A stretch of DNA of 41,557 nt from Gemmatimonadaceae bacterium (GTDB lineage: Bacteria; Gemmatimonadota; Gemmatimonadetes; Gemmatimonadales; Gemmatimonadaceae), in the NCBI GenBank assembly GCA_025358925.1, contig JANYHT010000028.1:1-41557 (forward strand), written 5' to 3'. Every line of letters starts with the position of its first letter. The first letter of the stretch is position 1. Shown one piece after another: positions 171 to 4,847 of this stretch. The notes under the pieces are model-generated. The model made no database searches. It was not told the DNA's origin and saw nothing but the letters and a program-made list of their open reading frames with translations. The position numbers and the translations under genes were made by a program.

Positions 171-435
171 TCAGTCGAAGCCGCCGACTTCTCGCCGATC
201 ACGAAGGCCGGTTCCACAAATGCACGCGTCATGTTGAACGGACAACGAATCTACACTATCAGCTTCGACGGCAGTGACCAAAAGGTGCAGGTACGCAATC
301 TCGCTGTAAATCGCTGCATATTTCACGCTCGTTACCGACTGCGCGCACCGTAGCCGAGGATGTGTCAAGAACCATCGTGGAATAGTGATTGCGAACCGTA
401 GCGATGCCTGCCATTCAGTGGATCATGATTATGCG
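171..435. other. third integron cassette, truncated; coding content unresolved
   Basis: This 265-bp stretch follows attC1 in array order and is cut by the IS3 element. No clear gene is recognisable. On the minus strand a TTG-started frame (368-171, 65 codons) stops right at the IS boundary, and an ATG-started frame of about 50 codons (from about 408) stops near 254. On the plus strand a frame open from inside the IS to 353 gives a polar, protein-like segment (for example NARVMLNGQRIYTISFDG). Its start would lie in the IS, so it could only be the tail of an antisense cassette gene. I cannot choose between these. Confidence 0.35.
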
Positions 436-532
436 GTCTAACGCCTAGAGCTAAGCTGCAAAGGGTGTCCAACAATTGCGAGCGTAGCGAGCATCAGTAG
501 CGAGCCTTTGTCAGCTTCAGCGATCGTTAGAT
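436..532 (-). other. attC1 integron recombination site (97 bp)
   Basis: On the minus strand the site opens with R'' ATCTAAC (532-526) and closes with R' GTTAGAC (442-436). The L arms pair as AAGCTG-A-CAAAGG against CCTTTG-CAGCTT, leaving one unpaired A in the L'' arm. That extra base is the known asymmetry that orients attC sites and marks the recombined strand. The centre carries three GCTCGC units and the segment GCTCGCTACGCTCGCA, nearly identical in attC2. It follows the membrane-protein gene, whose stop codon lies in R''. Confidence 0.9.
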
Positions 533-1012
533 TACCGGCGGCAACGACGCTGGGGGAACACTTCCTAGACGTCGCATCATTGGCAGCCCGGCCGCTCGGC
601 GCGCTAGCGCGAGGGTCGCGATCGACAGGCCGGTGCCGATACAGCCCAAGCCAAGTGTTCCCGCGATCAGCACGCTCAGTGGCAGCACGCCAGGTGCTGC
701 GAGCCCGAGGGCCGCGCCTATCGTCGCGGCACCGAGGAAGCCGGACGTGCCAAGCCGCCCATAGCTCAGCTCCGCCAGACCTCGGCCCTGCTCGCGCCGA
801 GCGACGAGCGATGCGAAGAGACTCCCCGCGACGCCCCCCGCGACGAAGGCTCGGATCGCCACCGCGACCAATTCACGAATGCCGAAGACGGACGCCGGGA
901 TGAGCTGGAGTTCAATACCGGCGACGAGCACGGTCACTGCCAGCGCGGAGAGTCCGACCGCCCAAGTAGCCGCCGTGCGTAGAATGCCGCGAGCTCGGAG
1001 TGCAGAGAACAT
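527..1012 (-). CDS. cassette-encoded small integral membrane protein, function unknown
   Basis: A 161-residue hydrophobic protein with about four predicted membrane segments (roughly residues 13-33, 45-66, 88-108 and 114-136), separated by short basic loops such as VARREQ and ALARRAAG. I recognise no catalytic motif. The ATG at 1012 follows GAGGG with 3 bases between and lies 25 bases after the GTTAGAT box that opens the cassette. The stop codon TAA (529-527) sits inside the R'' box of attC1, a common feature of mobile cassettes. The gene fills its cassette with almost no spare DNA. Cassettes usually lack promoters, so expression probably depends on read-through. The IS1182-type element now lies between it and the integrase side, so upstream read-through may be blocked or supplied by the IS. 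Confidence 0.75.
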   Translation of the reverse strand: MFSALRARGILRTAATWAVGLSALAVTVLVAGIELQLIPASVFGIRELVAVAIRAFVAGGVAGSLFASLVARREQGRGLAELSYGRLGTSGFLGAATIGAALGLAAPGVLPLSVLIAGTLGLGCIGTGLSIATLALARRAAGLPMMRRLGSVPPASLPPVI

Positions 1013-1037
1013 CGGCCCTCTTGTGATAACTGTGGTA

Positions 1038-1044
1038 ATCTAAC
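1038..1044 (-). other. attC2, R' half (cut off by IS insertion)
   Basis: On the minus strand this is GTTAGAT, the R' core box that begins the membrane-protein cassette. It is the missing end of the attC whose body lies at 2850-2940. The IS1182-type element starts at the next base, 1045. Joining 1038-1044 to 2853-2940, which treats the repeated AAC as a target duplication, restores a complete attC of 95 bp. Confidence 0.8.
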
Positions 1045-1063
1045 GAGGCTGTAGGAAAAGCCT
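1045..1063 (+). repeat. left terminal inverted repeat of the IS1182-type element
   Basis: It pairs with 2831-2849 and differs at three of 19 positions (5, 11 and 18). The GGxTGTxxxAAAAG core resembles ends typical of IS1182-type elements. Confidence 0.8.
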
Positions 1064-1161
1064 TGATGAATGTGTAATGTGGAAACGGAACGCACGACCG
1101 ATTGACGGGTGTTGGATGCATCGAATGTGTGGCTGCTGTGACCCGCTGTCGAGGACGCGCT

Positions 1162-2691
1162 TTGGCCCGGTACAAATTCGTCGATACGAATCCGCAGTTC
1201 CTCAGCGTCGACCTCGCGCGCCAGTTGCTGCCCGGGACGTTCGAGTACGCGCTGAATCATCTGCTGGATCACGACGTCGATCTGGCGCACTTCGATGCGC
1301 GGTTTCGGAACGACACGACGGGCGCGCCGGCGTATCCACCGGCCATGCTACTCAAGGTCGTGCTGTTCGCGTACTCGCAAGGGATCGTCCGCAGCCGCGC
1401 GATCGAGCGCGTGTGCCAGGAGCACGTCACGTTCATGGCGCTCTGCGGCATGACCGCGCCGCACTTCACCACCATTGCGCACGTTGTCAGCACGCTCCGC
1501 GACGACATCGCGCAGGTCTTTGCGGCGGTGTTGGCGGTCTGCGACGGGCAAGGGCTGATCGGGCGCGAGATGTTTGCGATCGATGGCGTGAAACTGCCGA
1601 GTAATGCGTCGAAGCACCGGAGCGGGACGCGCGCCGAGTTCACGCAGCGCGCCGAGAAATTGGAGAAGGCCGCGCAGGCAATGCTCGACCGGCACCGGGC
1701 AACCGACGCGCTGGAGCTCGAGCCCGATGTCGCCGCCAAGACCACCGCGCGGATCGCACGGCTCTCCCGCGATGCACAGCAGCTGCGCGCGTGGCTCGCG
1801 ACGCATCCGACGGATCGCCGTGGCCCGACGGGCGGTCTGCGCAAGAGCAATCGCACGGACAACGAGCGCGCGAAGATGGCCACGGACAAAGGCGTGATCC
1901 AAGGGTACACGGGCGTCGCGACGGTCGATGCGAAACACCAGATCATTGTCGATGCGCAAGCGCACGGTACCGGCTCCGAACACGAACTGTTGCTGCCTGT
2001 GGTGACCGCGCTCGCGGCCCTGCGCACAGGCGAAACGGTGCTCACCGCCGATGCGGGCTACCACAGCGAAGCGAATCTCGCCGCGCTCGCGGCGCTGCGT
2101 GTGCCCGCGCTCATTGCCGATCCGGATATGCGGAAGCGCGACGAACGATTTGCCGCGCGTGACCACCACACGAGTGCGCCGAATCCGTTGCACGATAAGT
2201 CGCGCGACGCCACGCGCGCGCTCCCGGTGTTTGCGCCGAGTGATTTCACGTATGACGCCGACGCGCGCACGTGTGTGTGTCCGGCGGGGAAGTCCCTGTA
2301 CCGCAAAGGCGCGAGCAACGTGACGAACGGGTATGTGGGCGAGCACTTTCGCGGGGCGAAACGCGATTGCGCGCCGTGTGCGTTGCGCGCGCAGTGTCTG
2401 CGCACGCCCGAGACGACCGTGGTCCGCAACGTCGCGTTCTTTCGAGGGCGCGCGGACACGGAGCGCGAGACGCACACGATGCGCATGCAGCAGCGCCTCG
2501 ATGCGCCCGAGGGTCGCGCACAGTACGGGCAACGTTTCGCGACGGTCGAGCCGGTGTTTGCGAACGTGCGGTACAACAAACGACTGGATCGCTTCACGCT
2601 GCGCGGACGTGCCAAAGTGAACGGCCAGTGGCTGCTGTTTTGCCTGGTGCACAACATCGAGAAGCTCACCCACGTAGGGTATGCAGCGTAG
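1162..2691 (+). CDS. IS1182-family-like DDE transposase
   Basis: A 509-residue cut-and-paste transposase that appears intact. The preferred start is TTG at 1162, giving MARYKFVDTNPQFL, the usual opening of this family, with GAGGA just upstream. A frame open from 1102 would add 20 poorly matching residues. The N-terminal part (about 1-110) resembles the DUF772/InsH N-terminal domain. Candidate DDE residues are D141 (FAIDGVKL), D297 (LTADAGYHS) and E463 (VEPVFANVRYNK). The tail RFTLRGRAKVNGQWLL...HNIEKL is characteristic of the family. A cysteine cluster (DCAPCALRAQC, about residue 410) could bind metal. The element carries no passenger gene. IS1182 is assigned by recalled similarity; another IS5-superfamily branch is possible. 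Confidence 0.9.
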   Translation: MARYKFVDTNPQFLSVDLARQLLPGTFEYALNHLLDHDVDLAHFDARFRNDTTGAPAYPPAMLLKVVLFAYSQGIVRSRAIERVCQEHVTFMALCGMTAPHFTTIAHVVSTLRDDIAQVFAAVLAVCDGQGLIGREMFAIDGVKLPSNASKHRSGTRAEFTQRAEKLEKAAQAMLDRHRATDALELEPDVAAKTTARIARLSRDAQQLRAWLATHPTDRRGPTGGLRKSNRTDNERAKMATDKGVIQGYTGVATVDAKHQIIVDAQAHGTGSEHELLLPVVTALAALRTGETVLTADAGYHSEANLAALAALRVPALIADPDMRKRDERFAARDHHTSAPNPLHDKSRDATRALPVFAPSDFTYDADARTCVCPAGKSLYRKGASNVTNGYVGEHFRGAKRDCAPCALRAQCLRTPETTVVRNVAFFRGRADTERETHTMRMQQRLDAPEGRAQYGQRFATVEPVFANVRYNKRLDRFTLRGRAKVNGQWLLFCLVHNIEKLTHVGYAA

Positions 2692-2830
2692 ATCACGAGG
2701 GAAACGCAGCGCGCACAGTCGCGAACGGCGCAATGTGGCGGGAAAATGCGTTCAAACAACATCCACCGTTGGTCATTCTTGTCTCCCGTGCATTTTTGCG
2801 TGACGCGACACCTCGGCGCGGAGCGCGGTG

Positions 2831-2849
2831 AAGCTTTTTCTACACCCTC
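2831..2849 (-). repeat. right terminal inverted repeat of the IS1182-type element
   Basis: Read on the minus strand from 2849, it matches the left end at 1045 in 16 of 19 positions. Confidence 0.8.
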
Positions 2850-2940
2850 AACGTGTGCGTTCAGCTGCAAGCGAATGGAACAATGCGAGCGAAGCGAGCA
2901 CGCAATAGCTCGCTTGTCAGACTGCAACGGTTTGTTAGAC
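2850..2940 (-). other. attC2 integron recombination site (body; R' end displaced by the IS)
   Basis: On the minus strand it opens with R'' GTCTAAC (2940-2934). The L'' arm CTGACAAGCGA pairs with the L' arm TCGCTTGCAG, again with one unpaired A in L''. Its central segment GCTCGCTTCGCTCGCA differs from that of attC1 at one base. The site ends in CGCACACGTT at 2850, where the IS interrupts it. The rest of the R' box is at 1038-1044. It terminates the esterase cassette. Confidence 0.85.
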
Positions 2941-3031
2941 CGTCTGCGAATGGACATAGAGGAGTTTGATACGAAGTAAGGAGTACCGGTTGAGCGATAT
3001 GTTGGTGCAGGCGTACCAGGAACATTAATAT

Positions 3032-3820
3032 TTACCGATGCTGACCGGAGAGCCATCGAAACAACTCTGCCTCAGCGTACGCTTTCGGCGGTGCGGTGTC
3101 GTGGTCGGCACCGGGTAGTTCCGTGTATCGTACTGGTGCGCCGAGGCTTCTCAATGAAGTAACGAGTCTGCGCGATTGATCGACAGGTACGTTCGTATCC
3201 GCATCGCCGTGAAAAACCCACATTGGCATTTTCCTTAGTCCTGCTGCAAGCGCCGCGAACGGATCCGCCTTCGCGACAACGGGATTCGAGGCCCGGTCTA
3301 CTGCGATTTCATCAGCCGTGTAGCTCGCGCCGGGCTCCACGCGCCCGGCTACAATGACAACAGCCGCGAATCGCTCAGGGAATTTATACGCGAGGCGATA
3401 GCTACCTGTCCCACCCATCGAGTATCCGTGGAGATACAGTCGTGTCGTATCCACCCGGTATTCAGCAATCGTGCGATCCAACTCTGCCATTACCAACTGT
3501 TGCATTTGCGGATAGAACCATCGCGTGCCAAGACGCGCTTGCGGGAAGACTACTATGAAAGGAAAGGGCGCGCGGTTTTCTCTGATGCGAATCGCGAAGT
3601 CCGTGCCCGTCTGCAGCATACCGTCTGATCCCTGTCGTCCATTCCCATGAAGCGACACGATCACCGGCCAACTCATGCCAGGCCTATAGTCTGACGGGAC
3701 GTACACCTGATACTGGAAGGACGCGCCGGAGATTGTGATCGTGCGGTCGAGAAATCCCGTTTGAGCATGACCAGGGATCGTGACGGCGGTGGCGAGTGTG
3801 AATAGAATGACGTTTCGGAT
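3032..3820 (-). CDS. secreted alpha/beta-hydrolase (PHB depolymerase/phospholipase-carboxylesterase type), cassette gene
   Basis: A serine esterase of the alpha/beta-hydrolase fold. Motifs include the oxyanion-side segment VIVSLHGNGRQG, the nucleophile elbow GYSMGG, an aspartate in FHGDADTNVP and a C-terminal histidine in GADHDTAP. This resembles PHB-depolymerase-like or prolyl-oligopeptidase-like esterases; the substrate is unknown. The frame runs upstream through a good signal peptide (RNVILFTLATAVTIPGHAQ) and the first beta-strand. However, no ATG, GTG, TTG or CTG lies in it between an in-frame TAG (3841-3839) and GTG at 3706. GGGGAGG sits four bases before an ATC codon at 3820, so I provisionally start there (262 residues). 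Starting at 3706 would remove the signal and a core strand. Alternatively the start codon was lost by mutation. It is the first cassette after the candidate attI. Confidence 0.75.
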   Translation of the reverse strand: MRNVILFTLATAVTIPGHAQTGFLDRTITISGASFQYQVYVPSDYRPGMSWPVIVSLHGNGRQGSDGMLQTGTDFAIRIRENRAPFPFIVVFPQARLGTRWFYPQMQQLVMAELDRTIAEYRVDTTRLYLHGYSMGGTGSYRLAYKFPERFAAVVIVAGRVEPGASYTADEIAVDRASNPVVAKADPFAALAAGLRKMPMWVFHGDADTNVPVDQSRRLVTSLRSLGAPVRYTELPGADHDTAPPKAYAEAELFRWLSGQHR

Positions 3821-3855
3821 AGGACCTCCCCGGGTACTCTAACATGACTTGGCCG

Positions 3856-3873
3856 GTCTAACGCGTATTAGAC
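3856..3873 (-). other. candidate attI core / first cassette junction
   Basis: The sequence is an 18-bp near-palindrome, GTCTAA-N6-TTAGAC. On the minus strand it contains GTTAGAC (3862-3856), the core box expected where the first cassette joins attI. It lies about 40 bp before the esterase gene and about 210 bp beyond the integrase remnant's stop codon. No full attC fold surrounds it, which fits attI rather than attC. The upstream binding sites of attI are not recognisable by eye. Confidence 0.55.
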
Positions 3874-4084
3874 TGCGAGAGAAAGCAGCGTGGCGCGGCT
3901 CATATAGCGCGTTTCTGCAGTATAACCAAGAACACCCCCCGCGCCGCAAATCTCTGCAACTAGTTGGGAATATTGATCTTGCACGCACTCCCTGACAATC
4001 ACCGTCGCCGATTTATATAGCAGATATTGCGATGTAACGTGGTCGCGCGCATAGAGGCGCCCGCGCCTACTACCATCGCCGCAC
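3874..4084 (-). other. intI-attI spacer, possible short ORF
   Basis: This lies between the integrase remnant and the candidate attI core and is less G+C-rich than the flanks. A minus-strand frame is open through most of it and stops with TAA at 3870-3868, inside the GTCTAA half of the core. A GTG start near 3999 would give a peptide of about 43 residues, but I see no convincing ribosome-binding site and no known family. A promoter for the cassettes could lie here; none is clear. Confidence 0.3.
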
Positions 4085-4847
4085 CTACCGAACGTCAACG
4101 TCCAATGGACTTCGCACGCAGAGACCGCCGCGATTCAGCATGTGCGTGTAGAGCATGGTCGTCGACACGTCGCGGTGCCCCATCAACTCCTGCACGGTGC
4201 GAATGTCATAGCCTGCGGCAAGTAGATGCGTCGCAAAAGAATGTCGAAATGTATGACAGCTTACGCGCTGCGACAGGTTCGCCTTTGCGGCCGCTTCCGT
4301 TACCGCGCGCTGTAGCACCGTCTGATGAATGTGATGCGTTCGTCGTTCTCCGCTTTCTATATCCACGTATTCGCGATATTTGAGCGGCAACTTCATCGCG
4401 GATCTGCAGCGGCACCATCGTGACGCGATCACGATCACCCTTGCCACGCCGCACACGAAGCTCACCGCGCTCAAGATCAATATCCTTAATGCGCAACTGA
4501 CAGCATTCCGACACGCGCAACCCCGCACCGTAAAGCAACATCGCCATCAAGCGCGGTGTGCCTCGCATTTCTGTTAGCACGCGTTGCGCGTCCTCGCGCG
4601 ACAACACATTCGGCAGGTGGTGCGGTCGTCGCGCAGCAGCGACGCCCTTCAGCGGGTCGAGCGGTTGCTCCAACACAGTCGCGTAGAGAAACTGCAGCGC
4701 AGCCAACGCCTGATTTTGTGTGGAGATCGCCACGCGTCGCGACTGCGCCACGTGCGTCAGAACTTCGCGATTGGCCGTAGCGCCGAGTTCGCGTGGATGT
4801 TTTCGGCTGTGAAATTTCACGTAGGCAATAATCCATAGCTCTTCAAT
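4085..4847 (-). pseudogene. intI: integron integrase IntI (tyrosine recombinase), truncated and frameshifted
   Basis: Integron integrases recombine attC and attI sites. The upper frame (down to about 4385) encodes the core-binding domain (FHSRKHPRELG, STQNQALAALQFLY) and the first catalytic box ([26 protein letters not shown]). The next part is in the neighbouring frame: [11 protein letters not shown], then [36 protein letters not shown] and the IntI-typical ending [13 protein letters not shown]. All catalytic residue positions (R, K, HxxR, H, Y) survive, but split between frames. About 45 residues normally present between the two boxes, the IntI-specific insert, are missing at the shift point (about 4375-4390). 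The N-terminus is also gone: recognisable sequence begins near 4847 (IEELWIIAYVKF), directly against the neighbouring MBL gene's stop. It is transcribed toward the array, in the same direction as the cassettes. Confidence 0.9.

What the first reader, a model, noticed from the sequence alone, without database searches (positions are those of the whole stretch)
1038..2940. IS1182-type element inserted at the recombination triplet of an attC
The IS ends lie exactly at the invariant GTT (AAC on plus) of the attC core, which is present on both flanks (1042-1044 and 2850-2852). Removing the IS and one copy restores a 95-bp attC. Insertion at this point could be site preference for a folded hairpin or for the integrase cut site, or chance. 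IS110-type elements targeting attC are known (IS1111-attC); I do not know of an established IS1182-type case.
Basis: partly seen in the sequence, partly recalled or inferred. Interest (0 to 1): 0.75.

Follow-up and report, generated by a model that had tools for sequence, protein, structure and literature searches.

The report
IS1182-type element that targets attC sites
A bacterial jumping gene of the IS1182 family, together with its relatives in several bacterial phyla, inserts almost always at the exact DNA letters where integrons cut and join their gene cassettes, so it lives in cassette arrays without breaking cassette genes.

Summary
An intact 1805-bp IS1182-family element (1045-2849) sits at the GTT triplet (AAC on the plus strand, 1042-1044 and 2850-2852) of the R' box of a 95-bp attC, which is the integron integrase crossover point.

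There are 83 non-redundant loci of the group with a readable end, the window included; 67 have both ends. Of those 67, 60 carry an identical AAC or GTT triplet on both sides. One flank is an attC (46 of 68 sites pass a hairpin test set at 5% false positives). The other flank is a true cassette start (24 of 66 match the R'' box of the next attC, 2.1 expected). Orientation relative to attC is fixed in 28 of 28 members of the window's clade; an older, paraphyletic set uses the opposite orientation. Ordinary IS1182 copies in the same genomes show no such targeting.

I found no published IS1182-type case, but only open-access papers were searched. The phenomenon resembles IS1111-attC, which has an unrelated transposase. 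It is a new variant of a known kind. Whether the transposase reads duplex sequence or folded attC is unresolved.

The parts
1045..2849 (+). IS1182-family insertion sequence (attC-targeting group), 1805 bp
   Evidence: transposase above curated IS1182 cut-off; TIRs
1045..1061 (+). left terminal inverted repeat GAGGCTGTAGGAAAAGC
2833..2849 (-). right terminal inverted repeat (GAGGGTGTAGAAAAAGC on minus strand)
1162..2691 (+). transposase, 509 aa, intact (homology starts at the TTG codon at 1162; the ORF itself opens further upstream)
1042..1044 (+). AAC (GTT of R' on minus strand), 3-bp target duplication, outer copy
2850..2852 (+). AAC, 3-bp target duplication, attC-side copy
1038..1044 (-). 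outer half of split R' box, GTTAGAT; start of the next cassette
   Evidence: its extension GTTAGATTACC equals the reverse complement of the R'' end of the attC at 436-532
2850..2940 (-). rest of the split attC: R'' GTCTAAC (2940 to 2934), stem, then GTT (2852 to 2850); uninterrupted site is 95 bp
3032..3706 (-). cassette gene (esterase / alpha-beta hydrolase) to which the split attC belongs
527..1012 (-). cassette ORF on the other side of the IS, no Pfam or NCBIfam match
436..532 (-). intact attC of the next cassette
   Evidence: GTTAGAT 526-532 and GTCTAAC 436-442
4085..4820 (-). integron integrase remnant in two overlapping frames (broken)

Best explanation
This is an IS1182-family element belonging to a widespread group whose transposase inserts at the R' core of integron attC sites. 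Shown by sequence: it enters directly after the GTT triplet at which IntI crosses over, has GTT on both sides, and has an orientation fixed within its clade, so it ends up between one cassette's attC and the first bases of the next cassette. The attC hairpin stays whole; its R' box becomes GTT plus the IS end (GTTGAG or GTTGAA). Inferred: the DDE transposase recognises (C)GTTAG plus further attC features, makes a 3-bp staggered cut, and so duplicates GTT. Also inferred: insertion at a cassette boundary damages no gene, leaves the array recombinable, and lets the IS travel with the downstream cassette.
For: Transposase-only searches, made without reference to integrons, gave copies in Gemmatimonadota, Beta- and Gammaproteobacteria and others. 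Of 67 two-ended copies of the group, 60 have identical AAC or GTT triplets (one search lists 70 pairs, 3 of them from ordinary IS1182 elements). In canonical attC orientation the target is C(94%)GTT, then A(80%)G(71%). At 5% false positives, 28 of 42 (type A) and 18 of 26 (type B) sites have the R''/L''/L'/R' hairpin with an extrahelical base, against about 3 expected; at 1%, 32 of 68, against 0.7. The extrahelical base is on the L'' side in 44 and the L' side in 3, which puts the insertion at R', not R''. The outer flank is a real cassette start: its first 8 bases recur as the R'' of the next attC in 24 of 66, null mean 2.1, maximum 7 in 1000 permutations. Type A transposases form one supported clade, 28 of 28 in one orientation. 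Ordinary IS1182 copies in the same genomes (L067-L070) have other flanks (GGC, GTC). Carriers have integron integrase in 31 of 36 genomes; in the order of G221, all 11 carriers do, against a base rate of 122 of 300. IS-GTT-IS tandems (L115, L023) fit repeated use of the same attC.
Against: A minority (for example L010, L011, L016, L017, L064, L132) show no recognisable attC on the expected side, so attC is strongly preferred but not absolutely required, or it was later lost. No strictly empty allele of the same cassette junction was found. The hairpin test is home-made and has false negatives. No experiment was possible. The copies are partly related by descent, although their differing flanks make most of them separate insertions.
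Confidence: 0.85

Rival explanations
1. IntI, not the transposase, places the element: the IS forms a circle whose abutted ends carry a GTT spacer, and the integron integrase recombines that GTT with attC, as it would a cassette. The GTT triplets would then be crossover points, not target duplications, and orientation would be inherited with the spacer strand.
For: Position is exactly the IntI crossover; the IS ends give GTTGAG/GTTGAA, close to the R box GTTRRRY; carriers nearly always have IntI; fixed orientation within clades would follow from inheritance of the spacer.
Against: Copies with TIR-exact ends and the same triplet lie in non-attC places (for example L132 upstream of a chromosomal gene), which would need a reaction between two non-attC sites; 5 of 36 genomes show no integrase in the searched assemblies; ordinary IS1182 elements here also show short flanking duplications (CGGC in L067, GGTC in L069) away from integrons.
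Confidence: 0.08
2. The transposase recognises only a short duplex sequence, (R)CGTTAG, and attC is hit just because R' contains it.
For: 43 of 64 targets have CGTTA[GT]; exceptions without attC mostly keep CGTTA.
Against: About 1750 CGTTA[GT] sites are expected per 4 Mb from the window's composition, far more than plausible numbers of attCs, yet most insertions are in attC; about a third of targets, many of them in attC, lack CGTTA[GT].
Confidence: 0.1
3. Coincidence: an IS1182 element of no particular preference happened to land in one attC.
For: A single intact copy in the window's own genome.
Against: The same base of attC is used by dozens of independent copies in several phyla.
Confidence: 0.01

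Closest known systems
IS1111-attC group of the IS110 family (ISKpn4, ISPst6; Tetu and Holmes 2008, Post and Hall 2009, as cited in PMC11187229)
   Same: ISs that target one end of attC sites of gene cassettes.
   Different: IS1111 elements use a DEDD transposase guided by a seekRNA (PMC11187229). Here the transposase is an IS1182-family DDE protein with ordinary TIRs at the very ends and a 3-bp GTT duplication.
IS1182 family, including IS1272 (PMC5678879)
   Same: Transposase family; some members are reported to target palindromes or inverted repeats.
   Different: IS1272 replaces its inverted-repeat target and makes no duplication. This group inserts after GTT of attC R', keeps the hairpin and duplicates GTT.
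ISAjo2 / IS1202 family at pdif and dif sites (PMC10132070)
   Same: ISs that sit in fixed orientation at a fixed place beside a tyrosine-recombinase site.
   Different: Different transposase family, XerC/D sites, 5 bp away with 5-bp duplications; here insertion is inside the core box itself.
Group IIC-attC introns (PMC7923331)
   Same: Mobile elements that insert beside attC, using the bottom-strand hairpin.
   Different: Retroelements with a ribozyme and reverse transcriptase; this is a DNA transposon.

Membership tests
IS1182 family | Transposase matches the curated IS1182 model | tested here: met
   NF033551 278.1 bits, cut-off 270; several relatives fall slightly below it
IS1182 family | DDE-type transposase domain | tested here: met
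   PF13751, PF01609 and PF05598
IS1182 family | Terminal inverted repeats at both ends, single transposase gene | tested here: met
IS1111-attC group (IS110 family) | DEDD transposase of the IS110/IS1111 type | tested here: not met
   Pfam and NCBIfam give IS1182/DDE domains and no IS110/IS1111-type match
IS1111-attC group (IS110 family) | Targets an end of attC | tested here: met
   (works like it, but is not a member)
IS1272-type inverted-repeat replacement | Target stem-loop is replaced, no target duplication | tested here: not met
   attC remains whole on one side and the triplet is duplicated in 60 of 67 copies
Integron gene cassette | Element carries its own attC and moves by IntI | tested here: inconclusive
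   No attC was identified inside the IS ends; the attC beside it belongs to the neighbouring cassette; IntI movement not testable
Group IIC-attC intron | Reverse transcriptase and ribozyme | tested here: not met
   The ORF is a transposase

The most novel reading that the evidence does not exclude
The transposase recognises the folded bottom strand of attC, the same single-stranded hairpin that IntI uses, which would make this a DDE insertion sequence with a structure-specific, replication- or conjugation-linked target, evolved in parallel with integrons.
Probability: 0.25. Interest if true: 0.8.

Novelty: new variant of a known kind. Interest (0 to 1): 0.62.

Why it matters
It adds a second IS type, with a DDE transposase from a different family than the RNA-guided IS1111-attC elements, that has converged on the integron recombination site, and it spans several phyla. 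It offers a natural comparison of how unrelated enzymes find attC, a marker for cassette boundaries in unannotated genomes, and a route by which transposases and possible promoters enter cassette arrays without destroying them.

Tried and rejected
A covariance model trained on six class-1 attCs found its training sites but not the longer Gemmatimonas sites, apparently because its allowed hit length was too short; I replaced it with an explicit hairpin score and genomic controls. A test that the R'' box of the split attC should pair with the outer R' box on the other side of the IS was not significant (p 0.2). In integrated arrays the outer box belongs to the next cassette, and the test built on that was strongly positive. 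Folding the window's attC with and without the IS end gave no clear difference. A search for the empty allele of a non-attC copy (L132) found none in 7 genomes. Plasmid records hold only distant relatives. A first idea that type A sits at R'' was dropped when the extrahelical base showed the attC runs the other way. Row L012 in the tree is a wrong-frame translation and is ignored.

Full report
What is there. The element at 1045-2849 is an intact IS of 1805 bp with imperfect terminal inverted repeats (15 of the outer 17 bases match) and one transposase gene (homology from 1162, stop at 2691) that passes the curated IS1182 model and carries DDE domains. AAC lies on both sides (1042-1044 and 2850-2852). 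Joining the flanks with one AAC gives a 95-bp attC. The cassette genes here, an esterase at 3706-3032 and an unknown ORF at 1012-527, are on the minus strand, so the AAC is the GTT of the R' box, where the integron integrase crosses over. The 11 bases that begin the next cassette (GTTAGATTACC, reading leftward from 1044) are the reverse complement of the R'' end of the attC that closes that cassette at 436-532. The junction is therefore a cassette boundary.

Other copies. The window's genome has one intact copy plus decayed pieces. I collected relatives by transposase similarity only, from GTDB genomes, relatives of the host, the genomes behind the first hits, and samples of the order of a betaproteobacterial carrier and the class of a gammaproteobacterial carrier. 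After removal of identical flanks, 83 loci of the group, the window included, had a readable end (53 type A, 30 type B). Among 67 with both ends, 60 show identical AAC or GTT (the list of 70 pairs there includes 3 ordinary IS1182 copies). In canonical attC orientation nearly all share CGTT before the IS and GTTA or GTTG after it.

Is it attC? I scored each site for the attC layout (R'', spacer, L'' with one extrahelical base, L', spacer, R') and calibrated the score on 1099 GTT sites in the non-integron part of the window. At a 5% false-positive rate 46 of 68 sites pass, against 3.4 expected; at 1%, 32 against 0.7. A second scoring gave weaker but still highly significant results. The test is conservative: one of seven known class-1 attCs failed outright and another scored low, and by eye several failing sites (L008, L061, L113, L118) are attCs with a changed R'' box. 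An independent test looked only at the other flank. If it is a cassette start, its first bases should recur, reverse-complemented, as the R'' box of the next attC. For 8 bases this is so in 24 of 66 loci, mostly 400-1200 bp away, against 2.1 in permutations (maximum 7 in 1000 permutations).

Orientation and phylogeny. The extrahelical base lies on the L'' side in 44 and the L' side in 3 of the clear sites, so both types insert at R', not R''. They differ in orientation. In type A (the window's) the right IS end abuts the attC; in type B the left end does. In a maximum-likelihood tree, 28 type A transposases form one supported clade inside a paraphyletic set of type B; L108 shows that orientation has changed more than once. 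Ordinary IS1182 copies found in the same genomes (L067-L070) have unrelated flanks, and the three of them in the tree form a separate branch.

Link with integrons. Of 36 carrier genomes, 31 have an integron integrase. In the order of G221 the rate among 300 genomes is 122, and all 11 carriers found in that order are among the 122. Where IS and integrase share a contig they are mostly within 45 kb, for example 17 kb apart in the single-contig genome G029, with one exception at about 330 kb in G492.

How it probably works. The transposase recognises the R' core together with other attC features, and inserts after GTT with a 3-bp duplication. This leaves the attC hairpin whole with GTT plus the IS end as its R' box, and gives the next cassette an IS in front of it. 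IS-GTT-IS tandems (L115, L023) suggest the remaining attC can be hit again. Recognition of sequence alone is unlikely: CGTTA[GT] is expected about 1750 times per 4 Mb, yet most copies are at attC. Recognition of structure alone is also unlikely, because copies without attC mostly keep the CGTTA core. An IntI-driven capture of IS circles is possible but hard to reconcile with copies at non-attC chromosomal sites such as L132. The GTTGAG hybrid box should not be read as an adaptation, since ordinary IS1182 elements end in GAGG too.

Relation to what is known. ISs of the IS1111 group target attC with a different, RNA-guided transposase (PMC11187229 and references there). IS1182 members are reported to target palindromes, and IS1272 replaces inverted repeats without a duplication (PMC5678879). 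ISAjo2-like ISs sit at dif sites in fixed orientation (PMC10132070), and group IIC introns insert beside attC (PMC7923331). Searches for IS1182 together with attC or integrons found no description of this behaviour; only open-licence PubMed Central papers were searched, and ISfinder was not available. I therefore call it a new variant of a known kind.

Noticed in passing
window 4085-4820 (minus): The integron integrase next to the array is in two overlapping frames with a missing middle part, so it looks broken; a second, intact integrase lies elsewhere in the genome (G000:C23:30352-31296).
   Followed up: partly
window 434-4820: The cassettes lie downstream of the 3' end of intI and are read in the same direction as intI, the reverse of the class 1 layout.
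   Followed up: no
L006, L007, L035, L036, L039, L058, L060, L061 near the right IS end: Many Gemmatimonadota copies have, 30-50 bp inside the right end, an inverted copy of the right terminus plus the target (GCGTTGAAGC against GCTTCAACGC); degenerate in the window copy. It could be a second transposase site or a hairpin that mimics the R box.
   Followed up: no
L115 (G876) and L023: Tandem IS-GTT-IS arrangements, suggesting repeated insertion at one attC.
   Followed up: no
L130 (G876:C1, about 329450-330970): One flank of the IS is a cassette start, the other a chromosomal gene cut at GACGTT with no attC, as if a cassette array had entered a secondary site.
   Followed up: partly
G000:C53:150382-150912, G000:C56:6368-6709, G000:C64:32479-36838: Decayed copies of the same IS elsewhere in the host genome; the C53 and C56 pieces lie beside attC sites, and C64 holds an attC about 4 kb from its piece.
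   Followed up: partly
L010 target site: This non-attC target lies in an imperfect stem-loop (CTCCGGTAATACGTTATCTGGAG), in line with reports that IS1182 members like palindromes.
   Followed up: no
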